DNA of 64,000 bases. It comes from Pseudonocardia sp. CNS-139. GTDB lineage: Bacteria; Actinomycetota; Actinomycetes; Mycobacteriales; Pseudonocardiaceae. Numbering within the stretch: position 1 is the stretch's first letter; each line of letters starts with the position of its first letter. Shown here in pieces: positions 19,457 through 59,564 of the stretch. The notes below the pieces were generated by a model, which saw nothing but the letters and a program-made list of their open reading frames with translations, was not told the DNA's origin and made no database searches. A program made the position numbers and the translations under genes. The stretch is taken from the NCBI GenBank assembly GCA_001942415.1, contig MKJX01000111.1, positions 62,001 through 126,000 of the forward strand, in the 5' to 3' direction.

Positions 19457-19479
19457 TCACAAACTCGATGACTCTGAGA
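19457..19479. promoter_or_regulatory. shared catabolic operator, site 1 (TCACA-N13-TGAGA)
   Basis: Matches the shared palindrome with one mismatch in the right core (TGAG for TGTG). It ends 54 bases before the GTG of the first aldehyde dehydrogenase and just after the TetR stop. GACTAT directly after the site (also found at site 2) may be the -10 element. Confidence 0.6.
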
Positions 19480-19533
19480 CTATCGGGCTCGCCTCGTCGG
19501 CCGCGGCCGGCCCGGGAGAGGGAGCTGCGGTCA

Positions 19534-21002
19534 GTGACGAGTGATCTGGTGCGGTCGGTGCTGGTGCGGGACCGGTGCCTGGTGGGCGGCGCATGGGTCG
19601 AGGCCGACGACGGCCGCCGGTTCGCGGTGCGCGACCCCGCGTCGGGCGCGGAGGTCGGCTCGGTGCCCGACCTCGGCGCCGCCGACGTCCGTCGCGCGGT
19701 CGACGCGGCCGAGCGGGCACAGCGGAGCTGGGCCGCGGTGCCGGCCCCGGATCGCGCCGACGTCCTGCGCCGCTGGTTCGACCTGATCACCGACGAGACC
19801 GAGGACCTCGCCGGGATCCTCACGTCCGAGCAGGGCAAACCGCTGGCCGAGGCCCGGGGCGAGATCCGCTACGCCGCGTCCTACGTGCGGTTCTACGCGG
19901 AGGAGGCACGCCGGATCGCGGGGGAGGTGCTGCCGGCGCCCGTCGCCGACACGCGCATCGTGGTGCTGCGCCAGCCGGTCGGGGTCGTCGCTGCGATCAC
20001 CCCCTGGAACTTCCCCGCGGCGATGGTGACGCGCAAGGTCGCACCGGCGCTCGCCGCGGGGTGCGCCGTCGTGCTGAAGCCGGCCGGGCAGACCCCGTTG
20101 ACCGCGCTGGCGCTGGGGGCGCTCGCCCAGCGCGCCGGCCTGCCGGACGGTCTGCTCAACGTCGTCACCGGGGACGCCCGGACGATCGGCGGCGTGCTGT
20201 GCGGGCACCCGGTGGTGCGGGGGCTGTCCTTCACCGGTTCGACGGAGGTCGGACGGACGATCGCGGCGCAGTGCGCGCCGACCGTCAAGAAGGTCGCGCT
20301 GGAGCTCGGGGGGAACGCCCCGTTCCTCGTCTTCGACGACGCCGACCTCGACGCCGCGGTCGCAGGCGCGGTGTTCGCGAAGTTCCGCAACGCCGGGCAG
20401 ACCTGCATCTGCGCGAACCGCTTCCTCGTGCAGGAGGGCGTGTACGACGAGTTCGTGCAGCGCTTCGGGGCCGCGGTGTCCGGGCTGCGGGTGGGTCACG
20501 GCCTCGACCAGGGGGTCGACGTCGGGCCGCTGATCGACGGCGCCGCGCTCGGGAAGGTCCGCGAGCACGTCGCGGACGCCCTCGGACGCGGTGCGCGGCT
20601 GGTGCTCGGCGGGCCACCCGGCGAGCGAGGGCTCGCCGAGCCGTTCTACCCGCCGACAGTCCTGGGGGACGCGGACCGACGATGCTCGTGGCGGGGGAGG
20701 AGACGTTCGGCCCCGTCGCGGCGGTGTTCCGCTTCCGGGACGAGAACGAGGCGATCGCGCTGGCCAACGACACCGAGTACGGCCTCGGCGCCTACTTCTA
20801 CACGCGCGACGTCGGCCGGGTGTGGCGGGTCGCGGAGGCGCTGGAGACCGGCATGGTGGGCGTCAACACCGGCGTGCTCTCCACCGAGCTGGCCCCGTTC
20901 GGCGGGATCAAGCAGTCGGGCATCGGCCGCGAGGGCTCGCGGCACGGCCTGGACGAGTACCTGGAACTGAAGTACGTCGCGCTGGGCGGCCTCGACCGCT
21001 GA
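19534..21002 (+). CDS. aldehyde dehydrogenase (succinate-semialdehyde dehydrogenase-like)
   Basis: NAD(P)-dependent aldehyde dehydrogenase of about 489 residues, closest in style to GabD-type enzymes. Motifs: [34 protein letters not shown] with the general-base glutamate, and [11 protein letters not shown] with the catalytic cysteine. The GTG at 19534 is a choice among several in-frame GTG codons; GGAG lies 11 bases upstream. A frame break near 20680 separates the C-terminal part that starts [11 protein letters not shown]. It heads a five-gene operon leading to an enoyl-CoA hydratase, suggesting oxidation of an aldehyde to an acid during substrate breakdown. Confidence 0.85.
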
Positions 21003-21011
21003 TTGCATGAT

Positions 21012-21036
21012 GACACAGTCTGTGTAACTGTGTGAC
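21012..21036. promoter_or_regulatory. shared catabolic operator, site 2 (GACACA-N13-TGTGAC)
   Basis: An exact match to the CACA-N13-TGTG core, with a further inner palindrome ACACAG-T-CTGTGT. It lies in the 75-base gap between the two aldehyde dehydrogenase genes, 41 bases before the second GTG. GACTAT overlaps and follows its right arm, as at site 1. Confidence 0.75.
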
Positions 21037-21077
21037 TATCCGCTCGCCGGAGCGGCAGTGCTGCCTCAGGAGGTCGT

Positions 21078-22524
<1,447 letters not shown>

Positions 22525-22528
<4 letters not shown>

Positions 22529-23706
22529 CTGTCACCGGCCGGGGCCGCGCGGGGACGACCCTCGACCTGCCCGTGGGATCGCTGCCACCGCAGGCGCAGT
22601 CGCTGCGGGACGAGGTCGTCGCCTTCCTCGCCGACGAGCTGCGGATCGGTGGGTTCACGCCGCGGTGCGACGCATGGATGAGCGCCGCCGATCCCGCGTT
22701 CACCCGGCGGCTGGCCGGCCGGGGCTGGGTCGGCATGACCGTGCCGGGCCTGTACGGGGGCCACGGCCGCTCTCCGCTGGAGCGGTTCGTCGTGGCCGAG
22801 GAGCTGCTGGCCGCGGGGGCGCCGGTCGCGGCGCACTGGATCGCCGACCGCCAGATGGCGCCGTCGATCCTGCGGCTCGGCACCGAGGAGCAGAAGCACC
22901 GCTACCTGCCGGCGATCGCGCGCGGCGAGTGCTTCTTCGCGATCGGCATGAGCGAGCCGGACGCCGGGTCGGACCTGGCCGCCGTCCGCACCCGGGCCCG
23001 GGAGGTGCCCGGCGGGTGGGAGGTCACCGGCACCAAGCTGTGGTCCACGGGCGCGCACCTGGCGCACGCGATCGTGCTGCTCGCCCGCACCGATCCCGCC
23101 GAGGGGAGCCGGCACGCCGGTCTCTCGCAGTTCGTCGTCGACCTCCCGTGGCCGGGCGTCACTGTCCGCCCGATCCGCACCGTGGACGGCGAGCACCACT
23201 TCAACGAGGTCGTGCTCGACGCCGCGGTGCTGCCGTCCGACGCGCTGCTCGGCACCCGGGGTGCCGGGTGGGAGCAGGTGACGGCGGAGCTGGCCCACGA
23301 GCGGTCGGGGCCGGAACGGCTGCTCAGCACGATGCCGCTGCTCGTCGCCTGGGCCGACGCGCTGGAGAAGGACGGCGCCGGCCCGGCCGCCCGCCGGGAG
23401 GTGGGCCGGCTGCTCGCGCGCGCCTGGACGGTGCGGCAGATGTCGCTGGCCGTGGCGACGGCGCTCGCGGACGGCCGGAGCCCCGCGGTGACCGCCGCAC
23501 TCGTGAAGGACCTCGGGTCGCGGTTCGAGGGCGACGTCGTCGAGACGGTGCGCCGGCTCCGGCGCGCCCCGGTCCGGCGCGGCGCGGCGGACGGCGTCGA
23601 GCGGCTGCTGCGGGACGGGCTGCTGCACTCGCCGGCGTTCACGCTGCGCGGCGGCGCCAACGAGATCCTGCGCTCGGTCGTGGCCGGGCACCTGGGGGTG
23701 CGATGA
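22525..23706 (+). CDS. acyl-CoA dehydrogenase
   Basis: An intact flavoprotein of about 393 residues that introduces a double bond into an acyl-CoA. It has the N-terminal helical domain, AIGMSEPDAGSDLAAVRT contacting the flavin in the beta domain, and a C-terminal LRGGANEILRSVVAGHLG. The GTG at 22525 overlaps the previous stop and the product's stop overlaps the next ATG. The partner gene follows directly, so the two may form a heteromeric dehydrogenase, as in steroid side-chain pathways. Confidence 0.87.
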
Positions 23707-24779
23707 CCGACCACCTCGACGACCTGCGCTCCGCCGCCGAGGCGATGTTCGCGGGGCGGGAGCCGCACGACGCGGTGCCCGACCCCGAGCTGGACACCCT
23801 GCTCTGGAAGAGCCTCGATGAGACCGGGTTCTCGCTGCTCGGCGTCCCGGAGGAGGCGGGCGGCAGCGGGGGCACGCTCGCCGACGCCGCGGCCGTCCTG
23901 GAGATCGCCGCGGCGCACCTCGCGCGCGTGCCGCTCGGTGAGACGGCCGTGCTGGCGGGCTGGATGCTCGCGGGGAGCGGGCTGGCCGTTCCGGACGGCC
24001 CGCTCGCGGCGGCCGCGGGGGATCTGGCGCTGCGCCGCGACGGTGAGTCCTGGGTCGCGCACGGCTGGCTGCCCGACGTCCCGTGGGCCCGGCACTGCGG
24101 GCACGCCGTGCTCCTCGTGCCGGCCACCGAGCCGCGTCTCGTGCTGCTCCCGCTCCGCGGGACCCCGGGCGTGGCCGTGCACCCCGACACCAACGTGGCC
24201 GGCGAGCCGCGGGACACGGTTGAGCTGACCGGGCTGACCCTGCCCGCCGCCGCGGTACGGCCGGCCGGACCCGGGATCGACCAGGACGCCTGGGAGATCC
24301 GCGGGGCACTGCTGCGCACCGTGCAGCTGGCCGGCGCCGCGCAGCACGTGCTCTCCGCGACCGTCCGGCACACCCGGGAACGCGAGCAGTTCGGGCGCTC
24401 CCTGTCCCGGTTCCAGGTGGTGCAGCACCAGCTGGCCGTGCTCGCCGGTGAGGTGTCCGCGATGCAGGTCGCCGCCCGGGCCGCGGTCCTCGCGTACGAG
24501 ACGGCTCGGGCCACCGCTGCGGTGGCCGTCGGCGCGGCGAAGGCGACGGCGTCCGCGTCGGCGCACACCGTCGCCGCGATCGGGCACCAGCTGCACGGGG
24601 CGCTCGGCTTCTCCGAGGAGCACCGGCTCGGCGCCGCGACCACCCGGCTGTGGGCGTGGCGCGAGGAGTTCGGCAACGAGGACGTCTGGCACGAGCGGCT
24701 CGGGGCGGCGGTCGCGACGGCCGGCCCGGGCGGGCTCTGGCGGCTGGCCACCGGGCGCGCCGCCGAGGTGGGGCCGTGA
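23703..24779 (+). CDS. acyl-CoA dehydrogenase, short partner-type
   Basis: An intact 358-residue acyl-CoA dehydrogenase-like protein. The C-terminal domain is clear (TREREQFGRSLSRFQVVQHQLA, then HQLHGALGFSEEHRL), while the N-terminal domain is shorter than in a canonical enzyme and the usual SEPxxGSD flavin motif is not obvious. This pattern is common in the second subunit of alpha2beta2 acyl-CoA dehydrogenases (FadE pairs). It is coupled to its neighbours by overlapping ATGA and GTGA codons. A heterotetramer with the 22525 product is a reasonable inference. Confidence 0.83.
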   Translation: MTDHLDDLRSAAEAMFAGREPHDAVPDPELDTLLWKSLDETGFSLLGVPEEAGGSGGTLADAAAVLEIAAAHLARVPLGETAVLAGWMLAGSGLAVPDGPLAAAAGDLALRRDGESWVAHGWLPDVPWARHCGHAVLLVPATEPRLVLLPLRGTPGVAVHPDTNVAGEPRDTVELTGLTLPAAAVRPAGPGIDQDAWEIRGALLRTVQLAGAAQHVLSATVRHTREREQFGRSLSRFQVVQHQLAVLAGEVSAMQVAARAAVLAYETARATAAVAVGAAKATASASAHTVAAIGHQLHGALGFSEEHRLGAATTRLWAWREEFGNEDVWHERLGAAVATAGPGGLWRLATGRAAEVGP

Positions 24780-25534
24780 GCGACGAGGTCCGCACCGAGC
24801 TCGCCGACGGCGTCGCCGTCGTCACCCTGTCGAGCCCGCGCCGGCGCAACGCGATGAACCTCGACCTGGCCGCGAAGCTCGTCGCCGCCGTGCGGTCCGT
24901 GGTCGGGGCGCCGGAGGCCCGCGCGCTCGTCGTGACGGGCGAGCCGCCGGCGTTCTGCGCCGGGGGCGACCTGGCGGAGCTGCAGCGCAGCGACGAGCCG
25001 ACCCTCCGAGCGCTCTACGCCGGGTTCCTGGAGGTGGCGGCGTGCCCGCTGCCCACGATCGCGGCCGTCAACGGACCGGCGGTCGGGGCCGGCCTGAACC
25101 TCGCCCTCGCCTGCGACGTGCGGCTCGCCGGCCCGACCGCGCTCTTCGACGCGCGTTTCATGCAGATCGGCCTGCATCCGGGCGGTGGCTACACGTGGAT
25201 GGTGCAGCGTGCGCTCGGGCCGCAGGGCGCCGCGGCGTTGACGCTGCTCGGCGACGCGCTGGACGCGGCCGAGGCCGAGCGCGTCGGGCTGGTCTGGCGC
25301 CGCTACCCGGACGACGACGGGCTGCGCGCCGCCGCGCTCGACCTGGCCGGCCGGGCGGCCGCCGCACCCCGGGACCTCCTGGCCACGACGAAGGCGACCC
25401 TGCGGCTGACCGGGGCGATGGCGACCCAGGCGGAGGCGACGGAGCTGGAGCTGCGTGCGCAGGCCGCCTCGATCGCGTCGCCCGAGTTCCAGCGGCGTGT
25501 GACGGAGCTGCAGGAGCGCCTGCGCCGCCGCTGA
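24776..25534 (+). CDS. enoyl-CoA hydratase/isomerase family protein
   Basis: An intact crotonase-fold protein of 252 residues. It has the start VAVVTLSSPRRRNAMN, the oxyanion-hole segment FCAGGDLAEL near residue 62 and VNGPAVGAGLNLALACDVRLA near residue 100. The position of the usual second catalytic glutamate reads GLHPGGGYTW, so catalytic residues may differ from classical hydratases. It ends the five-gene operon and converges with the livF gene, with only nine bases between them. Confidence 0.87.
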   Translation: MSDEVRTELADGVAVVTLSSPRRRNAMNLDLAAKLVAAVRSVVGAPEARALVVTGEPPAFCAGGDLAELQRSDEPTLRALYAGFLEVAACPLPTIAAVNGPAVGAGLNLALACDVRLAGPTALFDARFMQIGLHPGGGYTWMVQRALGPQGAAALTLLGDALDAAEAERVGLVWRRYPDDDGLRAAALDLAGRAAAAPRDLLATTKATLRLTGAMATQAEATELELRAQAASIASPEFQRRVTELQERLRRR

Positions 25535-25543
25535 CGCCGCCGG

Positions 25544-26256
25544 TCACTGCGCCGCACCTTCGCCGAGCAGGGAGCCCAGCACCGCGGTCCGGGTGTCGGC
25601 CGAACCGGCGTCGCCGCCGAACACGAGCTCCCCGCGGGACATGACACGGACCGTGTCGGCGATCTCCAGGCCGACGTCGACGTTCTGCTCGACCATGAGA
25701 ATCCCGACACCGGCGTCCGCGATCCGCCGGATGCTCGCCATGACCTCGTCGATGATCACCGGGGCCAGGCCCATGGACGGCTCGTCGAGCAGGATCGCCC
25801 GCGGCGCCGCGGCCAGCCCGCGGGCCAGCGCGAGCATCTGCTGCTCGCCCCCGCTGAGCAGCCCGGCGGGTCCCTTCCGGCGGGCCGCGAGCACCGGGAA
25901 CATCGTGTAGGCCGCCTCGACGCGCCCGCCACCTCGGACGCCGGCCGGCTGTGCGCGCCGAGCCGGAGGTTCTCCTCCACGCTCAGGGGCGCGAAGACCC
26001 GGCGGCCCTCCGGCACCAGCACCACACCGAGCCGCACCATGCGGTCAGTCCGGAAGCGCGTCACGTCCCGGCCGTCGAGCGTGATCCGCCCGCCCGTCGC
26101 CGGATGGAGGCCGGCGACCGTGCGGAGCGTCGTCGACTTGCCGGCGCCGTTCACCCCGAGCACCAGGGTGACGGTGCCGGGCTCGACCGTGAACGAGACG
26201 CCGCGCACGACGTCGCGGCCGCCGTAGCCCGCGGTCAGGCCGGTGACCTCAAGCAT
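25544..26256 (-). CDS. livF: branched-chain amino acid-type ABC transporter ATPase (LivF)
   Basis: ATPase of about 237 residues, last gene of the leftward Liv operon. Walker A is GVNGAGKST, the signature [15 protein letters not shown] and Walker B ILLDEPSMGLAP. The ATG at 26256 follows GGGGAG and overlaps the 3' end of livG by eight bases. A frame break near 25925 splits the protein before MFPVLAARRKG. It energises an importer for an organic or amino acid whose identity is not visible. Confidence 0.85.
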
Positions 26257-26987
26257 GCCGTGCTCCCCTCCGGCCGAGGTAGGACTCGCGCACCCGGGCG
26301 CCTGGACGACGTCGGCCGGGACGCCGCTGGTGACGACCTCGCCCTGCACCATCGCGACGATCCGGTCGCACAGCCCGACCAGCATCGGCACGTCGTGCTC
26401 GACGAGCACCTGGGTGACGCCCTGGTCGCGCAGCGCGGCGAGCAGGGCCGTGATCGCGTTGCGCTCGTCGGCGTTCATCCCGGCCGTCGGCTCGTCGAGA
26501 AGGAGGACCGCGGGCTCCATGGCGAGGGCCCGCGCGATCTCGACGCGGCGCTGGTCACCGTAGGAGAGCTCGTCGGGCCGCCGCTCGGCGTGCCCGGCGA
26601 TCCCGGCCCGCTCCATCGCACGGGTGACCGTCGCGTCCAGGGCCCGGCGCCGGGCCCGGGACGGGCGGCCGCGGTGCCGCACGTCGCGCCGAGCGCCACG
26701 TTCTCCCGGACCGACATCGTGGGCAGCAGCCGGGCGGTCTGGAACGAGCGGGCGACGCCCCGGGCGGCGAGGCGTTCCGGGGCCAGCCGGGTCACGTCCT
26801 CGCCGTGGAGCCGGACCGTGCCGGCGGTCGGCGTGACGAGCCGGGTGACGGCCGCCAGCAGCGTGCTCTTCCCGGAGCCGTTCGGGCCCATGATCCCGTA
26901 GAGCAGGCCGGCCTCGACGGCGAAGCTCACGTCGTCGACCGCGCGCACCCCGCCGAAGTGCACGCTCAGCCCATCCACCTCGAGCAT
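26249..26987 (-). CDS. livG: branched-chain amino acid-type ABC transporter ATPase (LivG)
   Basis: ATPase of about 246 residues: Walker A GIMGPNGSGKST, signature LSYGDQRRVEIARAL, Walker B VLLLDEPTAGM, and the typical C-terminus VRESYLG visible after repair. The ATG at 26987 has AGGAGGT upstream. Frame breaks lie near 26675 and 26285. The livM frame runs into it without a stop as sequenced, but its own ribosome site and ATG argue for a separate protein. Confidence 0.83.
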
Positions 26988-27007
26988 CGGGACCTCCTGC
27001 GCGCCGG

Positions 27008-27889
27008 TCACGAGACGGCTCCGGCCGGGGAGGGCCGCCGGCCGGCGCCGGGACCGCCGCCGGTGCCGGGCCTCGCGCAGCACGCCGACGACGCCGCCGG
27101 GCACCCAGATCGCGACGACGGCCACGATCGCCCCGTACACGACCTCCTGCCACTCGCCGACGAACTGCAGCGTGCTGGGAAGCCAGGTGAAGAACACGGC
27201 TCCGACCAGGGCGCCGACCCACGAGCCGGTACCGCCGACGATGATCATCGTCAGGGTGAGGACCACCACCGGGAACCCCATGTCCGCCGGGGTCGCGATG
27301 GTCCGGAAGGTGACGTTCACCCCGCCGGCGATCGCGCCGATCACCGCGCTGACCACGAAGACGGCCACGCGGACGCGGGTGACGGAGATGCCGGCCGTCA
27401 CCGACAGCTCCGGATCGAGCCGCACCGCCTCCAGCCGGCGCCCGAGGCGGCCGCGCTCGCTCGCCGCGGCGAGCCCCACGATCCCGGCGACGACCAGCAG
27501 GACCAGCCAGGACGGCAGCGTCGCCGGCACCCCGAAGAGACCCTCGGTGCCACCGGTGAAGTCGCCCCCGTTCATGATCCCCACCATCACGATCAGGTCG
27601 AACGCGATCGTCGCCATGCCCAGGTGCAGCCCGTCGAGCCGCCGTACGAGGAGGCCGAGCGCGCCGCAGGCCACACCGGCGACCGCGATCCCGGACCGAT
27701 CGCGGCCGTGGCGTCCCAGCCCCAGTGCAGGCTCGTGGCCGCGGTGGCGTACGTGCCGATCCCGTAGGCGCCGATGCCGGAGAACGTGAAGACGCCGGCC
27801 CGCACCGGGACCAGCAGGCTCAGCGCGAGCAGGAAGTTGACCAGCGTCGCCTGGACGAGCACGACGTTGGCGTCGAACAGGTCCGTCAC
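27008..27889 (-). CDS. livM: branched-chain amino acid-type ABC transporter permease (LivM)
   Basis: A multi-span permease of about 294 residues with the LivM signature stretch GMATIAFDLIVMVGI and GIMNGGDFTGGTEGLFG. The GTG at 27889 gives VTDLFDANVVLVQATLVNFLLALSLLV piecewise, the first membrane segment. A frame break near 27697 lies after ATAAIGPG. The stop is not in the main frame: an end at the TGA at 27008-27010, just before the livG ribosome site, needs one more small break. Otherwise it would read into livG. Confidence 0.78.
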
Positions 27890-27962
27890 GACCCCTCCTC
27901 GCTGACGCTCGTCGGTGCCGTGCCGGGCCGTGCTGCGTTGAATGGTGACCTCGCAAGCTCGG

Positions 27963-28847: not shown

Positions 28848-28866
28848 GTCGGGTCGGCTCGTCCGG

Positions 28867-50582: not shown

Positions 50583-51382
50583 TCATCGACGCGCACGCGC
50601 ACGTCTGGCCCGACCACGTCGCGGCCCGCGCCCTCGCCGCGAACCCGGTGCCGGGACTCGCCGCGCGCGGGGACGGCACGGCCGGCGGGCTGGAGGCGGC
50701 GATGTCGGCCTCCGGCGTCGGCCTGAGCTGCTGCCTCGCCATCGCCAACGAGGGCCGGCTGGTCGATCGGGTGAACGGGTTCGCGGCGTCCCTCGCGGCC
50801 GCGCGCCGGCTGCCGTTCGGCACGGTGCACGTCGACCTGTCCCCGGAGGAGAACCTCGCGAGCCTGCGCCGGCACGGGCTGCGCGCGGTGAAGCTGCACC
50901 CGCTGTTCCAGCGTTTCGCGCTCGACGACCCGCGACTCTGGGCGATCTTCGACGCGATGGGCGCGGACTACACGGTGATCGCGCACGTGGGCGAGGGCGG
51001 GGACGCGTACCGCAACAGCCTGTCCAGCCCGGCCATGATCGCGCGGATCGCCGGGAGCTTCCCGCGGCTCCCGCTCGTGGCCTGCCACTTCGGCGGCTAC
51101 AAGATCCTCGACGACGCCGAGGAGATGCTCGCCGGGGCCGACGTGGTGCTCGAGACGTCCTGGCCGCCGTCGCTGACGGCGCTGCGCCCGGAACGGGTCG
51201 CCCGGCTCGTGCGGCGCCACGGTGCCGAGCGGGTGGTCTTCGGGTCGGACTGGCCGATGACGGATCCGGTCGCGGAGATCGCGGCGGTCGAGGCGCTCGG
51301 GCTCGGGGACGACGCGACGAAGCTCGTGCTGGGCGGCACGATGGCGCGCCTTCTCGGCATCGGGTCGAGCTGGTCGGCCTGA
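50579..51382 (+). CDS. amidohydrolase family protein (ACMSD-like)
   Basis: An intact 267-residue metal-dependent hydrolase/decarboxylase of the Amidohydro_2 type. Metal and catalytic motifs are IIDAHAHVW at the start, VKLHPLFQ near residue 102, IAHVGEGG near residue 138, CHFGG near residue 170 and VFGSDWPMTDP near residue 220. The GTG at 50579 overlaps the acyl-CoA dehydrogenase stop. The group includes decarboxylases and lactone or ring hydrolases, fitting ring breakdown beside the ThDP enzyme. The exact reaction is not visible. Confidence 0.85.
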   Translation: MIIDAHAHVWPDHVAARALAANPVPGLAARGDGTAGGLEAAMSASGVGLSCCLAIANEGRLVDRVNGFAASLAAARRLPFGTVHVDLSPEENLASLRRHGLRAVKLHPLFQRFALDDPRLWAIFDAMGADYTVIAHVGEGGDAYRNSLSSPAMIARIAGSFPRLPLVACHFGGYKILDDAEEMLAGADVVLETSWPPSLTALRPERVARLVRRHGAERVVFGSDWPMTDPVAEIAAVEALGLGDDATKLVLGGTMARLLGIGSSWSA

Positions 51383-51413
51383 CGGCGGGCGGTGACGGGC
51401 CGCGCCCGCCGTC
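51381..51413. terminator. hairpin between convergent amidohydrolase and SDR genes
   Basis: A perfect 11-bp inverted repeat (GACGGCGGGCG/CGCCCGCCGTC) with an 11-base loop starts at the amidohydrolase stop codon. It ends before the convergent SDR stop at 51425 and can terminate both transcripts. Confidence 0.65.
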
Positions 51414-51424
51414 AAGCCCGTCCG

Positions 51425-52213
51425 TCAGCGCATCATCGTGTGGCCGCCGTCCACCGAGAGCGTCTGGCCGGTGATGTAGCGGGCGCCGGGGCTCGCGAGG
51501 AACACCAGGTAGGGCAGGAAGTCGAGCTCCGGATCGCCGAGCCGGCCGCCGACGACGATGTTCTCGGCGAGCCAGGCGTCGTGGCGCGCCAGCTCCTCCG
51601 GGGTGAGCCCGGCCCGCGTCCGCTCGTACATCGGGGTGCGGATCCCGGGGCACAGCGCGTTGACGGTGATGCCGTGGCGACCCCACTCGGCCGCGACGGT
51701 GCGCGTCCAGGACAGCACCGCGCCCTTGCTCGCCGCGTAGTGGCCGTGGTCCAGGTAGCCGCGGACCGCGGCGCCGGACGCGAAGTTGACGATCGCGCCG
51801 CCGCCGGCGCGCAGCGCCCGGAACGCGGCCTGGTTGGTGTGCAGCGTGCCGGTCGCGTTCACCGCCATCACCCGGTCCCAGTCCTCGGTGGTGACGTCCT
51901 CGGCCTTGGCGGCGTGGTTGATCCCGGCGGCGTGCACCAGGACGTCGAGGCCGCCGAGCCAGCCGGTCGCCGCGTCGAACGCGTGGTCCACGCTCGACCG
52001 GTCCGTGACGTCGCAGGTCGTGAAGCGGGCGGCGTCCCGGTCGGCGGGCTGCGCCGCCTTCACGACCTCCTCGCCCGCCACGGGGTTCAGGTCCAGCGAG
52101 GCCACGGTCGCGCCCGCGCGCACGTAGCCTCCGACGAGCGTGGCACCCATGCCGCTCGCGCCTCCGGTCACGACGATGCGCCGGCCGGCGAGCAGACCCT
52201 CGGTACTCGACAT
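51425..52213 (-). CDS. SDR family oxidoreductase
   Basis: An intact 262-residue SDR: IVVTGGASGMGATLVGGYV, DVLVHAAGINHAA (AAG replacing NAG), NFASGAAVRG with the catalytic serine, HYAASKGAVL with tyrosine and lysine, and TGQTLSVDGGHTMMR at the end. The ATG at 52213 directly follows operator site 9. On the coding strand TAACAT lies at -12 to -7 from the A of the ATG, so transcription probably starts at the start codon and the message is leaderless. Confidence 0.87.
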   Translation of the reverse strand: MSSTEGLLAGRRIVVTGGASGMGATLVGGYVRAGATVASLDLNPVAGEEVVKAAQPADRDAARFTTCDVTDRSSVDHAFDAATGWLGGLDVLVHAAGINHAAKAEDVTTEDWDRVMAVNATGTLHTNQAAFRALRAGGGAIVNFASGAAVRGYLDHGHYAASKGAVLSWTRTVAAEWGRHGITVNALCPGIRTPMYERTRAGLTPEELARHDAWLAENIVVGGRLGDPELDFLPYLVFLASPGARYITGQTLSVDGGHTMMR

Positions 52214-52214
52214 G

Positions 52215-52237
52215 TCACAATGTTACAATCTATGTGT
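52215..52237. promoter_or_regulatory. shared catabolic operator, site 9, on a bidirectional leaderless promoter
   Basis: Exact core TCACA-N13-TGTGT squeezed between two divergent SDR genes whose start codons are only 22 bases apart. TACAAT (52224-52229, rightward) and TAACAT (leftward strand) both lie inside the spacer at the right distance for start-codon transcription starts. A protein bound here would block both promoters. Confidence 0.78.
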
Positions 52238-52993
52238 GGATGTGTCATCTCTGGTGGACCTGACCGGCCGGGTGGCGCTCGTGACCGGCGCCACCCGCGG
52301 CCTCGGGCGGGCGATCGCGGAGGGCCTGGCCCACGCCGGTGCCGACGTCGTGGTCGTGAGCCGGAAGGAGGACGCCTGCGCGCAGGCCGCCGCGGAGATC
52401 GCCCGCGAGACCGGCCGCGAGGTGCTCCCGGTCGCGGCGCACGTGGGGCGCTGGGCCGATCTGAACCGGCTCGTCGAGACCGCGTACGGGCACTTCGGCC
52501 GGGTCGACGTGCTGGTCAACAACGCGGGCATGTCGCCGCTCTACGACTCCGTCGACACGGTGTCCGAGGAGCTGTTCGACAAGGTGTTCGCCGTCAACGT
52601 CAAGGGCCCGTTCCGGCTCGCCGCGCTCGTGGGCACCCGGATGGCCGCGGCGGGCGGCGGGTCGATCATCAACATCTCCAGCGGCGTGTCGGTGCGCCCG
52701 CGGTCCGAGGTGGTGCCGTACGCGGCGGCGAAGGCCGCGCTCAACACCGTCACCGTCGGCCTCGCCCACGCGCTGGGCCCCACCGTCCGGTGCAACGCGA
52801 TCGTCTGCGGCACCTTCCTCACCGACGTCAGCCGGCACTGGGACCCCGACGAGTTCGCGCAGCGCTCCGCACGCTTCGCTCTCCGGCGCGGGGGCGTCCC
52901 GACGAGATCGTCGGGACGGCCCTCTACCTCGCCGGCCCCGCCTCCAGCTTCACGACCGGCGCGCTCCTGACGGTGGACGGCGGCCAGCCCTGA
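52236..52993 (+). CDS. SDR family oxidoreductase
   Basis: An SDR of about 252 residues: VALVTGATRGLGRAIAEGLA, DVLVNNAGMSPLYD, NISSGVSVRP with the catalytic serine, YAAAKAAL with tyrosine and lysine, and GALLTVDGGQP at the end. The GTG at 52236 overlaps the operator edge; TACAAT at -12 to -7 indicates a leaderless message. A frame break near 52888 separates the final GRPDEIVGTALYLAG. It converges with the acyl-CoA ligase gene. Confidence 0.83.
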
Positions 52994-53022
52994 CGGCACC
53001 CGCAGGGTGATCACGGCGTGGC

Positions 53023-54686
53023 TCACCCCGCGACGAACTCCTTCGTCGTGCAGTCCCACACCGTCGCGGCCAGCCCGCGCTCGCGCAGCTTGTACTTCTC
53101 GACCTTCGCGTTGGTGTTGCGCGGCAGCTGCGCGACCGCGTCGAAGTAGCGCGGCACCATGAAGAACGGCAGCCGCTCGGTGCAGAACGCGTGCAGCCCG
53201 GCGTGGTCGAAGGCGGCGTCGGCGGCCACCTCGACGACGGCCAGGATGTCGTCCTCCAGCACGTCGCTGGGGATGCCGATCGCGGCCGCGTCGAGCACCG
53301 CGGGGTGCTGGCGCAGCACGTCCTCCAGCTCGACGGCCGACACGTTCTCCCCGCGCCGGCGCAGCGCGTCCTTCTTGCGGCCCTCGAAGTAGAGCCAGCC
53401 CTCGCCGTCGACGCGGGCCAGGTCGCCGGTGTGGTACCAGAGGTTGCGCAGGTAGCTCACCGTCGCCTCCGGGTTGCGCCAGTACCCGTCGAACATGACG
53501 TGCTGGCGGCGCGGGCGCACGACGATCTCGCCCACCGTGCCCGCGTCGACGTCGTCGTCCTCGTCGTCCACGATCCGGACCTCGAAGAGCTCGTCGTTGA
53601 CCCGGCCGGCGGAGTCGAGCGCGAAGTCCTCGCGGACGCCGCCCACCGTGACCTTGCAGATCTCGGTCTGCGCGTAGCAGGTCACGATCTTGCAGTGGTA
53701 GCGCTCCTCGAACTGCCGGTGGATCGAGCCGGGGATCGGCGCGGCGTAGAACACCCGCATCGGCAGCGTCGCGTCCTGCGGGGTCGCCGGGAGGTTCCAC
53801 AGCATCACCATCATCGAGCCGAGCATGTGCACCACCGTGGCGCCGGTCTCCCGGACCCGGTCCCACGTGCGGCTGGTGGAGTACTTGACGTCGAGCACGG
53901 TGTGCTGGCCGCACACGAGGCCGCCGGTGACGCCCGCGCCCTTGGTGGCGAGGTGGAAGAGCGGCATCGAGCCGAAGTAGACGTCGTCCTCGGAGCCCTC
54001 GTAGAGCAGCACCTGCTGGCGCCCGGCGGAGAGCAGGTAGTTGTGGCTGAAGGTCACGCCCTTGGACGCGCCGGTGGTGCCGGACGTGTAGACCACCGAG
54101 AGCGGGTCGCGGTGGTCGACCGTGGCCGTCGAGAGCAGCGCGCCGGTCGGTGCCGTCGCGAGCTCGTCCCACGGGAGGGCCTTGAGGCCGGCGCGCTCGA
54201 TCCGGCGCCTGCCCTCCTCGCCGCCCCGCAGCACCACCGTCTCGACCCCGCCGTCGCGGGCGGTCTCGACCACCGAGTCGAGGTAGCGCTCGTCCGCGAG
54301 CAGCACCTTGCGTCGGTGTTGCGCAGGGTCCGCCGGAGGAAGTCGCCGCTGAAGGCGGTGTTCACGGGGATCTCCACCGCGCCGATGCGGGAGGCGCCGA
54401 ACCAGCTCAGCACCATCGGCAGCGAGTTGTCCATCAGCATCGCCACGGAGTCGCCGTGGCCGACGCCGAGCTGGTGCAGCCCGTTCGCGTACCCGACAGA
54501 ACGCTCTGCGACCTGCGCGAACGTGGCGCTCTCACCGGCGATCGTGAAGCCGGGCCGGTCACCGGACAGCTCCGCCCGGCGGTCGATCACGGTGCTGAAC
54601 GGGACGCGGTCGTCCGGCTGCCATGCGTACCGGGCTTCGCTCCAGTCGCGGTCCGCGACGTGGGGGAGTGGGGTGGACTCGGGCAT
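53023..54686 (-). CDS. acyl-CoA synthetase (AMP-dependent, CaiC-like)
   Basis: An ATP-dependent acid:CoA ligase of about 554 residues. Motifs are VYTSGTTGASKGV (ATP loop), CYAQTEICKV, WYHTGDLARVDGEGWLYFEGR and NTNAKVEKYKLRE with the C-terminal lysine. A frame break near 54310 joins the N-terminal part (RIGAVEIPVNTAFSG) to LLADERYLDSVV. The ATG at 54686 follows AAGGA. It activates the acid substrate to its CoA ester, the entry step for the dehydrogenases, hydratases and thiolase around it. Similarity to crotonobetaine/carnitine-CoA ligase is by pattern only. Confidence 0.86.
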
Positions 54687-54728
54687 CCAGACCGTCCTTC
54701 TGCTCGACCGTGAACAATGAGGTCTGTG

Positions 54729-54751
54729 GCACAATGACACGTCGAATGTGC
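54729..54751. promoter_or_regulatory. shared catabolic operator, site 10 (GCACA-N13-TGTGC)
   Basis: Exact core with perfect 5-bp arms between the acyl-CoA ligase (leftward, 42 bases away) and the SDR/enoyl-CoA hydratase unit (rightward). Confidence 0.75.
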
Positions 54752-54890
54752 ATCTGCCACCGCCGGTGAGGTACATCGTCGCGCAGCACGCGGGGTGTGT
54801 GAAGCCGGTGCCGGACGAGCAGTCCCACCCGAACGAGAGGACCGCGATGACCGTCGACCCCGACCCCGCCGATGCCGGGACGGACGCGCG

Positions 54891-55654
54891 ATGAGGCCCG
54901 CGGACGGCGTCGCCCTCGTGACCGGGGGTGCATCCGGCCTCGGGCTCGCCACCGCGCGCCGGCTCGTCGACCGCGAGGTCCCGACCGTGATCGTGGACCT
55001 GCCGGCGTCGGACGGCGCCGCCGTCGCGGAGAAGCTCGGCCCGCTGTGCCGCTTCAGCGCCGCCGACGTCACCGACCCCGACGCGGTCCGGGCCGCCGTG
55101 GACGCCGCGTCGGCGCTCGGCCCGCTGCGGACCCTCGTGCACTGCGCGGGCCGCGGCGGCACCGTCCGGGTCGTCGACCGCGACGGCACGCCCGGGTCGC
55201 TGGACGCATACGCGGACATCGTCCGCGTCAACCTCGTCGGGACGTTCAACGTGCTGCGGCTCGCCGCGGCCGCCATGGTCGCGACCGAGCCGGTGGACGG
55301 CGAGCGCGGCGTCTGCGTCCTGACCGCCTCCGTCGCCGCGTGGGAGGGGCAGATCGGCCAGACCCCGTACGCGTCGGCCAAGGCCGGCGTGGTCGGCATG
55401 ACCCTCGTCGCCGCGCGCGACCTCGCGAGCCGGCTGGTCCGGGTGTGCACCATCGCGCCCGGCACCTTCGACACGCCGATCCTCTCGCGGTTCTCCGACG
55501 AGATCCGGGAGCGGCTGGCCGCCGCGGTGCCGCACCCCTCCCGCCTCGGCCGTCCGGACGAGTTCGCCGCGCTCGCCCTGCACATCGTCGAGAACCCGAT
55601 GCTCAACGGCGAGACCGTCCGGCTGGACGGCGCGATCCGGATGCCGCCCGGTGA
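54891..55654 (+). CDS. SDR family oxidoreductase (3-hydroxyacyl-CoA dehydrogenase type)
   Basis: An SDR of about 254 residues resembling type II 3-hydroxyacyl-CoA dehydrogenases (HSD17B10-like). It shows VALVTGGASGLGLATARRLV, LVHCAGRGGTVR, TASVAAWEGQIGQTPYASAKAG in pieces with serine, tyrosine and lysine, and APGTFDTPIL. The frame lacks its stop as sequenced; one base near 55645 restores MPPR and a TGA at 55652 that overlaps the next GTG. The start is uncertain: the ATG at 54847 has the better ribosome site (GAGAGGA) but needs another break near 54888. Confidence 0.8.
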
Positions 55655-56421
55655 CCGGCCCGGACGAGCCGGTGCTCGTCGAGCGGGCCGGCGCCGTGCT
55701 CGTCGTGACGATCAACCGGCCCCGCGTCCGCAACGCGGTCGACCTGGCCGCGGCGCAGGGCATCGGCGCCGCGATGGACCTGCTCGACGCCGACGACGCG
55801 CTGACGGTCGGGGTGCTGACCGGGGCGGGCGGGACCTTCTGCTCCGGGATGGACCTGAAGGCGTTCCTGCGGGGCGAGCGCCCGCGCACCGACCGCGGCT
55901 TCGCCGGGCTGGTCGAGCGGCCCCCGGCCAAGCCGCTGATCGCCGCCGTCGAGGGGCACGCGCTCGCCGGCGGCTTCGAGATCGTGCTCGCCTGCGATCT
56001 GGTCGTCGCCGCGCGCGACGCCGTCCTCGGCCTGCCGGAGGTGCGCCGGGGCCTGATCGCCGCCGGCGGCGGGCTCCTGCGGCTGCCGCAGCGGGTCCCG
56101 CTCGCACGCGCCTCGGAGTGGGTGCTGACCGGCCGGCACGTCCCGGCCGCCGAGGCGGCGGACGCGGGGCTCGTGAACCGCCTCGTCGAGCCCGGGAGCG
56201 CGCTCGGCGCCGCGCGGGACCTGGCCGCCGAGATCGCCGCCAACGGGCCGCTGGCCGTCCGCGCCAGCAAGCGGGTGCTCGCCGAGTCGCCGGGCTGGCC
56301 GCGCGAGGAGGCCTTCGCGCGGCAGTGGGAGGTCTACGAGCCCGTGCGCTCGTCCGCCGACGCCCGGGAGGGCGCCCGGGCGTTCGCCGAGCGCCGCGCG
56401 CCCCGGTGGACCGGTCGGTGA
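55651..56421 (+). CDS. enoyl-CoA hydratase/isomerase family protein (second)
   Basis: An intact crotonase of 256 residues: VLVVTINRPRVRNAVD, oxyanion segment FCSGMDLKAFLRGE near residue 67, VEGHALAGGFEIVLACDLV near residue 102, and LPEVRRGLIAAGGG with the usual second glutamate position. It is a more classical hydratase than the 24776 product. The GTG overlaps the SDR stop, so the SDR and hydratase form a matched pair for two consecutive beta-oxidation steps. Confidence 0.87.
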   Translation: MTGPDEPVLVERAGAVLVVTINRPRVRNAVDLAAAQGIGAAMDLLDADDALTVGVLTGAGGTFCSGMDLKAFLRGERPRTDRGFAGLVERPPAKPLIAAVEGHALAGGFEIVLACDLVVAARDAVLGLPEVRRGLIAAGGGLLRLPQRVPLARASEWVLTGRHVPAAEAADAGLVNRLVEPGSALGAARDLAAEIAANGPLAVRASKRVLAESPGWPREEAFARQWEVYEPVRSSADAREGARAFAERRAPRWTGR

Positions 56422-56446
56422 GCGCCGTCCCGGTGGCTGTCATGGC

Positions 56447-56471
56447 GACACATTGATTGTTACAGTGTGAC
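56447..56471. promoter_or_regulatory. shared catabolic operator, site 11 (GACACA-N13-TGTGAC)
   Basis: Exact core between the hydratase stop and the Rieske oxygenase, 51 bases before its ATG. TACAGT at 56461-56466 overlaps the right half and fits a -10 element, giving a leader of about 50 bases. Confidence 0.76.
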
Positions 56472-56522
56472 ACACAGCGGCGGGTGTCGACGACGCGATC
56501 CGCCAGGAACAGGGAGGTGGGG

Positions 56523-57594
56523 ATGACCGCGACCGACGAGATCCCGGCGATCCGGCAGTACGGTACCGGCTGGTACGTGGCGCTGTGGAGCGGCGACCTC
56601 GGCGTCGGCGACGTGATGCCCCTGCGCTACTTCGGGGCGGATCTGGTGGCCTTCCGCGGGGAGTCCGGCGAGGTGTTCGTGCTCGACGCGCACTGCCACC
56701 ACATGGGGGCCCACCTCGCCTACGGCGGCGAGGTGACCGGGGACGACATCATCTGCCCGTTCCACCACTGGCAGTGGCGCGGCTCCGACGGGGCCAACAC
56801 CAACATCCCCTACCTCGACCGCTGCGTGAAGGTGGCGCTGCGCCGGTGGCGCACCCTCGAACAGGACGGGATCGTCTACCTCTGGTTCTCCCGGAAGGGC
56901 GACGAGGAGCCGACCTACCTCCCGCCGCGGATCGCCGAGGCCGACGACCCGTCGTACTACCCGCTGCACCCGCACGGGATCGGCAAGGCCGTCGTCGGCT
57001 TCCCGCCGCAGTTCGCCTTCGAGAACGTGGCCGACATCAGCCACCTGCGCACGGTGCACAAGTGGTCCGACGAGCCCGTCCTCAACGCGCCGGGGCCCAC
57101 GGCGACATGTTCCACACCGACTTCACCGGCCACGTGCCCACGCGTGCGGGCGACGCCGTCGTGCGCGTCGAGAACTGGCAGTGGGGCCTCGGGGTGGTCT
57201 ACAGCCGGCTGCACGGGCTGCACCCGACCGCGCAGATCAGCGCCATCACCCCGATCGACCACGACAGCTCGGTCTACAGCCTGTCGATCTGGGTCGGCCG
57301 GGTCGACGACGGCGACGAGCCGCGCGGGCGCGCGAAGGCCGTGATCGCGGAGCAGTTCAAGCAGGCGCTGACCGCGGGCGGAACGACCGGGTCATCTGGG
57401 ACCACCAGATCTACCGCGAGAACGCCCCGCTGGTCGGCGACGAGCGCAAGACGATCGGGGTCTTCCGGGCCTGGTGCCGGCGGTTCCGGGAGGACAACCC
57501 GCCGCCGCTCCCGCCCGCCACGACGGTGCCCGAGGGCACCCCGTACCCCGAGCCGCCGGTGCGCTACCGGCCGGCTGCCGTCTCGGCGTCCTGA
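56523..57594 (+). CDS. Rieske non-heme iron oxygenase (KshA-like)
   Basis: Oxygenase component of about 357 residues. The Rieske cluster is ligated by AHCHHMGAHL near residue 60 and CPFHHWQWRGSDG near residue 79. The catalytic iron site has FENVADISHLRTVHKW near residue 167, with Asn, Asp and two His in KshA-like spacing. The ATG at 56523 follows GGAGGTGGGG. Frame breaks lie near 57103 and 57382. The class includes 3-ketosteroid 9alpha-hydroxylase and other alicyclic or aromatic hydroxylases. No reductase is adjacent; the VanB-type protein at 45907 is a candidate. A steroid substrate is not implied, since no KstD-type or Mce genes are seen. Confidence 0.85.
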
Positions 57595-57681
57595 CGCACG
57601 TCGCGGCTCCCCTCACCGTCGCCTGGGGCCCTCGGCCCCAGGGCGACGGCCGGGTCTCCACAGTCGAAAGGCAGTCCCCTC

Positions 57682-58554
57682 ATGAGCAGGAACTGGTTCG
57701 TCACCGGGGCGTCGCGCGGCCTCGGCCGCGCCGTCGTGTCCGCCGCGCTGGCCGCCGGCGACCGGGTCGCCGCGGCGCTGCGCCGTCCCGCGGACCTGGC
57801 CGACCTGGTGCACGAGCACCCCGGACGGCTGGTCGCCGTCCCGCTCGACGTCACCGACCCCGACGCGGTGCAGGCCGCCGTGCAGGCGGCCACCGACGCG
57901 CTGGGCGACCTCGACGTGGTCGTCAACAACGCCGGGTACGCCGACCTCGTCTCGATCGAGGACTCGACGCCGGAGCAGTTCCGCCGCCAGATCGACACCA
58001 ACCTCCTCGGGGTGGTGTACGTGACGAAGGCGGTGCTGCCGCGGATGCGGGAACGCGGGCGCGGGCACATCGTCAACGTCTCGTCGGTCGGCGGCCGGCT
58101 CGGCAACCCGGGGCTCGGGGCCTACCAGGCGGCCAAATGGGCGGTCAACGGGTTCACCGAGGTGCTGGCCGCCGAGGTGTCGGGGCTGGGGGTCCGGGTC
58201 ACGGCCATCGAGCCCGGCGGCATGGCGACCGACTGGTCGGGGTCCTCGATGACCGTCCCCACGCCGAGCGCGCCCTACAAGGAGACCGTCGGGGTGCTCG
58301 CGGACCTGTTCCAGGAGGGGGCGATCCGGCCCCTCGGGGACACCGCGAAGGTCGCCGACCTCGTCGTGTGGCTCGCCGGCACCGACGACCCGCCCGTGCG
58401 CCTGCTGGTCGGCTCGGACGCGCTGGCGGCCGCCCGCGCAGCGGCTCGGACGACGGCGGCCCGCGACGCCGAGTGGGAGCAGCTGACCAGGTCGACCGAC
58501 CGCGACGACGCCACGGCGGCCGAGCGCGACCCGCTCGGCAACGAGGACGCCTGA
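57682..58554 (+). CDS. SDR family oxidoreductase (classical, extended C-terminus)
   Basis: An intact 290-residue SDR: NWFVTGASRGLGRAVVSAAL, DVVVNNAGYADLVS, NVSSVGGRLG with the catalytic serine, YQAAKWAV with tyrosine and lysine, and IEPGGMATDW. The longer C-terminus with LLVGSDALAAAR is typical of a broad actinobacterial SDR group. It lies 87 bases after the Rieske oxygenase gene, probably in the same operon, and may oxidise the hydroxylated product. The end of the gene is part of a strong hairpin. Confidence 0.87.
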   Translation: MSRNWFVTGASRGLGRAVVSAALAAGDRVAAALRRPADLADLVHEHPGRLVAVPLDVTDPDAVQAAVQAATDALGDLDVVVNNAGYADLVSIEDSTPEQFRRQIDTNLLGVVYVTKAVLPRMRERGRGHIVNVSSVGGRLGNPGLGAYQAAKWAVNGFTEVLAAEVSGLGVRVTAIEPGGMATDWSGSSMTVPTPSAPYKETVGVLADLFQEGAIRPLGDTAKVADLVVWLAGTDDPPVRLLVGSDALAAARAAARTTAARDAEWEQLTRSTDRDDATAAERDPLGNEDA

Positions 58555-58575
58555 ACCGCGGCTCAGGCGTCCTCG
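58542..58575. terminator. long hairpin spanning the SDR stop codon
   Basis: A perfect 13-bp inverted repeat, arms 58542-58554 and 58563-58575, with an 8-base loop (ACCGCGGC). The left arm encodes the last residues and TGA of the SDR gene. It sits just before the convergent metallo-hydrolase stop at 58587 and can end both transcripts. Confidence 0.7.
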
Positions 58576-58586
58576 CGGGCTCCGTC

Positions 58587-59486
58587 TCACGCCTCCCAGT
58601 CGATGTGGCGCCGACCGTCGGTCCGGCGCAGCCGGCCGAAGACCCGGTTCGGGAAGTGCCCACCGGCGAACCAGGTGGCCGGCTCGGCCAGGATGCGGTC
58701 GATCGCGGCGCGGCTCCCGGCGGCGAGCCCGTGGTGCTCGTCGAACACGAACGTCTGGCCCGGGTGGACGAGCTCGATCGGGCAGTGCAGCGCGTCGCCG
58801 AGGATCAGCGCCCGGCCCGTGCTGCCCTGCACGTGCACGCAGGCGTGCCCCGGGGTGTGCCCGGGCGTGGGCACCAGCGTCACGCGGGACGTGACCGTGT
58901 GTCGCCCGGCGGGCGTCTCGATCCGCTCGCTCAGCAGCGCGACCTGCGCCTCGGTGACCGAGGTGCCCAGCGCCATCCGCTCGGGACGGCGCCAGTGGTT
59001 CCACTCGTCGCGAAGCACGAGGTAGCGGGCGCGTTCGAAGGTGTGGCGGGCCGGATCCTCGGGGCGGCCGAGCCAGCCGACGTGGTCGATGTGCAGGTGC
59101 GTGAACACGACCGTGTCGACGCGGTCCGGCGTCAGGTCCACGGCGGCGAGGCTGTCGAGCAGCCGGCCGCCGACGAGGTCGCCACGGTGGGCGCCGTTCG
59201 TGACGTCGGCGATGTCGATCGTCCGCGGCCCGAACCCGAGGTCGACGAGGACGACCTCGTCCGGCGTCCGGACGAGGACCGAGCCGACGCTCATCACGAG
59301 CATGCCGTCGCGGTCGAAGACCTCGGGGTGCGCGTGCCAGATGGCCCGTGGCGTGGTCGGGAACTGGCTGTGGGCCTCGACGTGGTGGACGCCGTCGGGC
59401 AGGAAGGCCAGCTCGACGTCGCCCAGGTCGAGGCGCGTGATCGGGGCGCTGTCGGCCTGCCCGGACAGCTCGGTGCGACTGGTCAT
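58587..59486 (-). CDS. metallo-beta-lactamase fold hydrolase
   Basis: An intact 299-residue metallo-hydrolase. The metal motif is VVFTHLHIDHVGW near residue 109, with further ligands in TPGHTPGHAC and LGDALHCP. The motif plan matches lactonases such as AttM/AiiA-type and related enzymes. The ATG at 59486 follows GGGAGAG. It diverges from the second Liv importer, with operator site 12 between, so it could open a lactone intermediate of the pathway. A quorum-quenching role is not supported by context. Confidence 0.84.
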   Translation of the reverse strand: MTSRTELSGQADSAPITRLDLGDVELAFLPDGVHHVEAHSQFPTTPRAIWHAHPEVFDRDGMLVMSVGSVLVRTPDEVVLVDLGFGPRTIDIADVTNGAHRGDLVGGRLLDSLAAVDLTPDRVDTVVFTHLHIDHVGWLGRPEDPARHTFERARYLVLRDEWNHWRRPERMALGTSVTEAQVALLSERIETPAGRHTVTSRVTLVPTPGHTPGHACVHVQGSTGRALILGDALHCPIELVHPGQTFVFDEHHGLAAGSRAAIDRILAEPATWFAGGHFPNRVFGRLRRTDGRRHIDWEA

Positions 59487-59538
59487 ACGCGCTCTCCCGT
59501 CGTTGGGGGTGCCGCCGGCATCGAGGCGGCGGACGTGT

Positions 59539-59564
59539 TGACACAATCTCATGAATCTGTGACA
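59539..59564. promoter_or_regulatory. shared catabolic operator, site 12 (TGACACA-N12-TGTGACA)
   Basis: Core arms with a 12-base spacer, as at site 5, between the divergent metallo-hydrolase (52 bases) and the second Liv importer operon (109 bases). Confidence 0.68.

What the first reader, a model, noticed from the sequence alone, without database searches (positions are those of the whole stretch)
19457..59564. One palindromic operator, TGNCACA-N13-TGTGNCA, heads nearly every transcription unit of a 40-kb catabolic region
Reading all promoter gaps shows the same symmetric element. Exact CACA-N13-TGTG cores are at 21014, 43698, 45800, 47132, 52216, 54730 and 56449. N12 versions are at 39513 and 59542. 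One-mismatch versions are at 19458, 31003 and 33379, and a weak one is at 40540. Each lies upstream of a gene, and most lie between divergent genes. An 8-base specified pattern is expected about once per 65 kb at even base composition, and less often in DNA this GC-rich, so this clustering is not chance. The linked units encode uptake, CoA activation, oxygenation, beta-oxidation and ring-cleavage-type enzymes, so this looks like a single previously unnamed regulon. I do not recognise the motif as KstR, KstR2, FadR or CRP type.
Basis: partly seen in the sequence, partly recalled or inferred. Interest (0 to 1): 0.88.

Follow-up and report, generated by a model that had tools for sequence, protein, structure and literature searches.

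The report
One operator across a catabolic island
A bacterium carries the same 35-letter DNA switch in front of nearly every operon of a large gene island for breaking down an unknown compound, so one regulator probably turns the whole pathway on and off.

Summary
CACA-N13-TGTG occurs 8 times in the window against 0.58 expected. TGNCACA-N13-TGTGNCA with at most one mismatch occurs at 8 places in the 7.1-Mb genome, all within 55 kb of one contig. Two corrections. (1) The element is larger: 35 bp, four half-sites, TGNCACA-N-TGNCACA-N5-TGTGNCA-N-TGTGNCA; in 10 of 15 elements a second palindrome overlaps the first, shifted 8 bp. (2) The island runs past the window: strong sites continue at contig 129235, 134237, 136779 and 137721, and at 174486. 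Two of them flank a second TetR gene (TetR2, contig 136944-137657). Best reading: a pathway-wide repressor, most likely TetR2, binds these elements over promoters; it works like KstR with a longer operator. No KstR, KstR2 or CRP site was found in 83 kb, and an ECF41 promoter does not fit. The 41-bp model finds nothing in the 61 other genomes of the genus. Regulator identity, stoichiometry and inducer are inferred; the substrate is unknown.

The parts
19447..19481 (.). operator element, dyad 19464, before an aldehyde dehydrogenase gene
21003..21037 (.). operator element, dyad 21020, before aldehyde dehydrogenase - two acyl-CoA dehydrogenases - enoyl-CoA hydratase
30073..30099 (.). weak site (15.7 bits, within background range) before the branched-chain-type ABC transporter genes
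31000..31034 (.). operator element, dyad 31017, between HIBADH-like dehydrogenase and molybdenum hydroxylase large subunit
33368..33402 (.). operator element, dyad 33385, before an SsuABC-like transporter and MFS carrier
39510..39535 (.). N12 form with perfect half-sites, before an SDR gene
40537..40563 (.). weak site between a quinone-oxidoreductase-type gene and a HIBADH-like gene
43695..43729 (.). operator element, dyad 43712, between OB-fold (ChsH2-like) and lipid-transfer-type thiolase genes
45789..45823 (.). operator element, dyad 45806, between an SDR and an FAD/NAD oxidoreductase gene
47129..47163 (.). operator element, dyad 47146, before glyoxalase-fold, TPP-enzyme and acyl-CoA dehydrogenase genes
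52213..52247 (.). operator element with four clear half-sites, dyad 52230, between two SDR genes
54727..54761 (.). operator element, dyad 54744, between a CoA ligase and an unknown gene followed by enoyl-CoA hydratase
56438..56472 (.). operator element with four clear half-sites, dyad 56455, before a Rieske oxygenase gene
59539..59564 (.). N12 form with perfect half-sites, between a metallo-beta-lactamase-fold gene and a second branched-chain-type ABC transporter
59599..59633 (.). weaker element, dyad 59616, in the same gap
19534..63169 (.). catabolic genes headed by the elements (continues beyond the window to about 78000 in continued coordinates); TetR2, the proposed repressor, is outside the window at contig C111:136944-137657, with elements at continued coordinates 67239, 72241, 74775 and 75725

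Best explanation
The elements are operators of one ligand-responsive repressor that silences the whole island until its substrate or an intermediate is present. The operator is a 35-bp element of four 7-bp half-sites (TGNCACA-N-TGNCACA-N5-TGTGNCA-N-TGTGNCA: two 15-bp arms around a 5-bp spacer), with dyads 2 to 136 bp from the nearest predicted start codon, where a bound protein would block RNA polymerase. The repressor is most likely the TetR-family protein TetR2, encoded at contig C111:136944-137657, 11 kb beyond the window's right end; its gene lies between two elements and would be autoregulated. More than one dimer per element is likely, as with QacR. Shown: the element, its architecture, its intergenic placement and its confinement to the island. 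Inferred: that TetR2 binds it, repression rather than activation, stoichiometry, inducer.
For: Enrichment and confinement. Intergenic placement, 9 of 15 between clearly divergent genes. Architecture. A site outside the matrix training set, found by the two-mismatch pattern, scores 29.6 bits. TetR2: an element 169 bp upstream of its start, a weaker copy at C111:136879-136905, and an element just downstream before a thiolase gene. Other nearby regulators are worse placed: TetR1 has its own palindromes; a GntR/FCD gene lies 3.6 kb past the last core site. Homologues of TetR2 sit beside similar genes: R. koreensis plasmid (33%: P450, AMP-ligase, aldehyde dehydrogenase), M. intracellulare plasmid (30%: P450s, OB-fold protein, thiolase), G732 (39%: branched-chain-type ABC transporter, linalool dehydratase/isomerase family). 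A loosened pattern [CT]ACA-N12/13-TGT[AG] lies within 400 bp upstream of the tetR homologue in 2 of 5 homologue loci (G732 and M. intracellulare), about 0.10 expected over the five; the pattern was chosen after seeing G732. KstR is the precedent for a TetR repressor heading a large catabolic regulon (PMC1995591, abstract and passages).
Against: No binding or expression data. Half-sites 20 bp apart are wider than in published single-dimer TetR operators (PMC6018408 and PMC6821364, passages), so more than one dimer must bind, or something else does. Both N12 and N13 spacers occur, which a rigid assembly would not predict. Three of five homologue loci (R. koreensis twice, G363) show no such site upstream of tetR, and by the same loosened exact pattern TetR2's own upstream region shows none either, because its element carries CGTG in place of TGTG. 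C111 has further TetR genes near 177.4 kb, 181 and 196 kb, and the genome has 111 TetR_N matches, so other regulators are not excluded. The element at 59616 scores within background. The assembly is 250 contigs, 78.5% complete.
Confidence: 0.55

Rival explanations
1. Same regulon, but the regulator is another protein, unlinked or elsewhere on the contig, perhaps of a family that forms tetramers and naturally spans two turns of DNA; it may repress or activate.
For: The 20-bp half-site distance is unusual for TetR. Several other TetR genes lie on C111 and 111 TetR_N matches in the genome. The outlying site at C111:174486 is about 3 kb from a TetR1 paralogue at 177362.
Against: TetR2 is the only regulator that the family searches found inside the core island with elements on both sides; two reading frames there have no family match and not every frame was scanned.
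Confidence: 0.32
2. TetR1 at 18855-19448, the reader's candidate, is the regulator.
For: It lies at the island's edge; the first element stands just downstream of it.
Against: No element upstream of its own operon; different palindromes there, resembling those upstream of its 58% orthologue in G010 and of one further homologue in G027; the other 9 homologue loci searched show neither palindrome. No CACA-N11-15-TGTG in the homologue loci L017-L023.
Confidence: 0.06
3. TGTCACA is the -35 box of ECF41 sigma-factor promoters.
For: Consensus TGTCACA-n16-CGTC and association with carboxymuconolactone decarboxylases and oxidoreductases (PMC3426412 passages); one such decarboxylase-family gene is in the island.
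Against: Only two loose matches to the bipartite promoter in the island; the elements have a symmetric second half; no sigma-factor gene turned up in the proteins scanned.
Confidence: 0.02
4. The matches are chance or a dispersed DNA repeat without regulatory role.
For: Away from C111 the two-mismatch pattern is not above its reversed control.
Against: 8 of 8 one-mismatch places in 0.8% of the genome, intergenic placement, only the half-sites conserved while spacers vary.
Confidence: 0.02

Closest known systems
KstR regulon (TetR repressor, lipid/cholesterol catabolism, mycobacteria)
   Same: One palindrome in many intergenic, often divergent, promoters of a large catabolic gene set, next to the regulator's own gene (PMC1995591, abstract and passages).
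   Different: KstR motif is 14 bp, TnnAACnnGTTnnA, bound as a dimer; no copy in the 83 kb examined. Here 35 bp and four half-sites; not found in the 61 other genomes of the genus.
QacR-type TetR repressors (pair of dimers on one operator)
   Same: Two overlapping palindromes in one element; QacR half-sites of 15 bp with a 6-bp spacer (PMC4486848 passages; PMC6018408 passages), here 15 bp with a 5-bp spacer.
   Different: Half-sites within each palindrome are 20 bp apart, wider than reported; QacR controls an efflux pump, not a catabolic island. Stoichiometry untested here.
SmeT / TtgR
   Same: By sequence, SmeT (2w53) is TetR2's best solved-structure match, E 2.5e-10, with TtgR among the next; SmeT binds a 28-bp pseudopalindrome (PMC3128119 passages).
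   Different: Similarity lies mainly in the DNA-binding half; these regulate efflux pumps.
ECF41 promoters
   Same: TGTCACA box (PMC3426412 passages).
   Different: No symmetric partner; needs CGTC about 16 bp on; not met.

Membership tests
KstR regulon | operator TnnAACnnGTTnnA | tested here: not met
   0 matches in 83 kb; motif from PMC1995591
KstR2 regulon | operator AnCAAGnnCTTGnT (recalled) | tested here: not met
   0 matches in 83 kb
CRP/GlxR regulon | TGTGA-N6-TCACA (recalled) | tested here: not met
   0 exact matches in 83 kb; half-sites face the other way
ECF41 promoter | TGTCACA-n16-CGTC | tested here: not met
   two loose matches only in the island
TetR-controlled catabolic regulon | one shared palindromic operator in intergenic promoters | tested here: met
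TetR-controlled catabolic regulon | operator next to the regulator's own gene | tested here: met
   elements on both sides of TetR2
TetR-controlled catabolic regulon | the TetR protein binds the operator and a ligand releases it | not testable with these tools
   needs gel shift and ligand tests
TetR-controlled catabolic regulon | motif conserved upstream of orthologues | tested here: inconclusive
   no second genome with the island found; 2 of 5 distant TetR2 homologues have a loosened match upstream
QacR-type pair-of-dimers operator | two overlapping palindromes in one element | tested here: met
   8-bp shifted second palindrome in 10 of 15 elements; other shifts 3-40: mean 0.57, largest 5 of 15
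QacR-type pair-of-dimers operator | half-site spacing that one TetR dimer can bridge | tested here: inconclusive
   20 bp centre to centre, wider than published

The most novel reading that the evidence does not exclude
The island is governed by a TetR-family repressor with an undescribed DNA-recognition geometry: four half-sites, two turns of helix between partners and an 8-bp register shift, so that pairs of dimers assemble cooperatively on about 18 elements and switch an entire, so far uncharacterised (possibly terpenoid) pathway as one sharp unit.
Probability: 0.25. Interest if true: 0.68.

Novelty: new member of a known kind. Interest (0 to 1): 0.5.

Why it matters
The operator ties together about 24 promoter directions over at least 56 kb (15 elements, 9 of them divergent), so it defines the membership of an uncharacterised catabolic pathway from sequence alone and gives a handle for finding the inducer. 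If the geometry is confirmed it adds an operator type to the TetR family, and the operator-repressor pair could serve as a substrate sensor.

Tried and rejected
Conservation in relatives was looked for and not found. TGNCACA-N13-TGTG was counted in 390 family genomes, own included: own 8 against a reversed control of 3; several others have as many or more matches, and a few show a like excess (G591 7 against 2, G411 5 against 0). These were not followed up as clusters; G411's handle comes from the order set, and a set of the same size drawn the same way lists no model match for it; G591 was not tested further. The CoA ligase has one match at E up to 1e-90 among 389 other family genomes, 44% identical. 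TetR2 has one match at E up to 1e-25 among 396 others of the order and one among 285 others drawn from the phylum; only a few candidates per genome were scored. The 41-bp model R1 finds no match in the 61 other genus genomes at E up to 1, and one weak place each in 4 of 396 other order genomes at E up to 0.5, under stricter filters. R1 was built from 15 elements, so recovering 14 of them is by construction; only its silence elsewhere is informative. A named-genome scan with TetR2 gave three distant loci, none actinobacterial by title.

The match at C173:91 lies in what I read as a 23S-5S rRNA spacer (sequence printed) and is taken as chance; 42330 is coding. The 233-kb background includes loci fetched because they hold CACA-N13-TGTG, which makes it a strict background. 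GCGTTTC-N17-GAAACGC upstream of the G363 homologue was seen and left as possible chance. Substrate: the P450's best PDB matches are 5y1i and CYP105Q4, the TPP enzyme's BbmA and, lower, cyclohexane-1,2-dione hydrolase, the thiolase piece's a thiolase (4u4e) and a lipid-transfer protein, and the reading frame taken for the Rieske protein none at E up to 1e-5; no single substrate follows. Literature searches for the motif or such a regulon gave no matching regulator; of these I saw listings and starts of abstracts. Passages only were seen of PMC3426412, PMC3128119, PMC4486848, PMC6018408 and PMC6821364; abstract and passages of PMC1995591. The library lacks most subscription journals.
Full report
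Setting. The window is contig C111:62001-126000 of a 7.1-Mb assembly in 250 contigs, 78.5% complete, 74.5% GC. No call names the organism; an actinobacterium is my inference from GC content and from the homologues. Coordinates above 64000 are window coordinates continued along the contig (contig position minus 62000; L004 position plus 63000).

The motif is real. CACA-N13-TGTG: 8 in the window, 0.58 expected, largest of 100 shuffles 3; 20 places in the genome, 9 on C111, reversed control 14. TGNCACA-N13-TGTGNCA with up to one mismatch: 8 places, all on C111 between 83011 and 137734, control 4. With up to two: 43 places, 17 on C111, control 55, so away from C111 it is background. N12 with perfect half-sites: 2 places, both in the window; with one mismatch allowed 6 places, 2 on C111, control 15. 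Across spacers 0 to 30 in 83 kb, N13 has 9 matches and no other spacer more than 2. A matrix from 17 centres (15 elements) gives leave-one-out scores of 21.6 to 33.1 for the main centre of 14 elements and 11.0 for the fifteenth (59620); the maximum in 233,551 background bases is 15.8.

For each of 15 elements I asked whether a second palindrome overlaps the first at a given shift. At 8 bp, 10 of 15 do; over the other shifts from 3 to 40 the mean is 0.57 of 15 and the largest 5, at shift 20. The aligned elements read TGnCACn-n-TGnCACA-nAnTn-TGTGnCA-n-nGTGnCA. Elements 21020, 52230 and 56455 show four half-sites clearly; many others show three. In several elements one inner half-site is poor while the pair 20 bp apart is kept, for example 75725 and 59616.

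Placement. 14 of 15 dyads are intergenic in my gene table, the fifteenth at the edge of a doubtful small ORF; intergenic DNA is 7.3% of 19449-77000. Start codons are predictions. Nine elements lie between clearly divergent genes. Leaving out the doubtful ORF, dyads are 2 to 136 bp from the nearest start. This is the geometry of promoter occlusion, so I infer repression.

What is governed. Families come from NCBIfam and Pfam: aldehyde dehydrogenases, acyl-CoA dehydrogenases, enoyl-CoA hydratases, two branched-chain-type ABC transporters, an SsuABC-like transporter, an MFS carrier, a molybdenum hydroxylase large subunit, 3-hydroxyisobutyrate-dehydrogenase-like enzymes, a ChsH2-like OB-fold protein beside a lipid-transfer-type thiolase, glyoxalase-fold proteins, a TPP enzyme, an amidohydrolase, a CoA ligase, a Rieske oxygenase, SDRs, and beyond the window a P450 and a reductase, aldehyde and alcohol dehydrogenases, a hydrolase, a carboxymuconolactone-decarboxylase-family protein and a thiolase.

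Extent. L004, the next stretch of the contig, has elements with dyads 67239, 72241, 74775 and 75725. A further place, C111:174473-174499, not in the matrix training set, came from the two-mismatch pattern and scores 29.6 bits, just upstream of another NAD_binding_2 dehydrogenase. The other stretches of C111 fetched (L001-L003, L005, and the rest of L040-L042) have no hit above 13.6 bits.

The regulator. TetR1 (18855-19448) lies at the island's edge. It follows a hydrolase gene whose upstream DNA has CTAACTAGTTGGTTAG and CTAACTGTTCAGTT; the 58%-identical orthologue in G010 has CTAACCGTCTAGTT and CTAACCGTTTAGAT upstream of its start, one more homologue (G027) has TAACTGGCTAGTTA, 9 other homologue loci have neither by the patterns used, and no other copy was found in the 83 kb. 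I read this as a local operator. TetR2 (L004:11944-12657) has element 74775 upstream, a weaker copy at C111:136879-136905, and element 75725 just downstream. Its best solved relative by sequence is SmeT. Homologues of TetR2 on an R. koreensis plasmid, on an M. intracellulare plasmid and in G732 sit near P450, CoA-ligase, OB-fold/thiolase, a limonene-epoxide-hydrolase-family gene, a branched-chain-type ABC transporter and a linalool-dehydratase/isomerase-family gene; this hints weakly at terpenoid-like substrates. In G732 the tetR homologue is preceded by TGTTACA-N12-TGTACTA, and in M. intracellulare by TACA-N13-TGTG. With [CT]ACA-N12/13-TGT[AG], 2 of 5 homologue loci have a match within 400 bp upstream of tetR, about 0.10 expected in all; the pattern was chosen after seeing G732, and TetR2's own upstream region does not match it exactly. 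Suggestive, no more.

How it would work. Without inducer TetR2 occupies the elements, probably as more than one dimer on overlapping palindromes, the topology described for QacR, and blocks transcription; a substrate or CoA-linked intermediate releases it and all units open together. The awkward point is the 20-bp distance between half-sites, wider than in the TetR operators that I saw described: either the pairing is not the one I draw, or the geometry is new, or another protein binds. I give TetR2 about 0.55 and an unidentified regulator about 0.32.

Comparison. It works like KstR, but no KstR or KstR2 site was found in 83 kb. It is not CRP-like or ECF41-like. The operator model is silent in the 61 other genomes of the genus and TetR2 is rare in the samples searched, so the island looks like a rare accessory module; transfer was not tested.

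Verdict. A genuine island-wide regulon whose motif I did not find in print in the searches made, with a longer operator than first described: a known kind of system with an unusual operator.

Noticed in passing
window 17845-18815, 19534-21002, 21078-22528, 36050-37130, 43729-44941, 44986-45770; L004 9243-10276: Many enzyme genes change reading frame in mid-gene (coding signal or family matches split over two frames), pointing to assembly errors or decay.
   Followed up: partly
window 17773-17831; L017 about 2086-2140; L026 1458: CTAAC..AGTT-type palindromes upstream of hydrolase-TetR1 and of two TetR1 homologues: a likely separate operator family.
   Followed up: partly
   Followed up: no
L055:10275-10307 and L056:9765-9797: Single good matches to the 41-bp operator model in two other genomes of the order (G247, G328), no second full match in the stretches fetched.
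   Followed up: partly
window 54872-55654: A 260-aa reading frame in the regulon without any Pfam match even at E up to 1.
   Followed up: no
genomes G591 and G411: Excess of TGNCACA-N13-TGTG over the reversed control (7 against 2, 5 against 0) similar to that of the window's genome; whether the places cluster was not examined.
   Followed up: no
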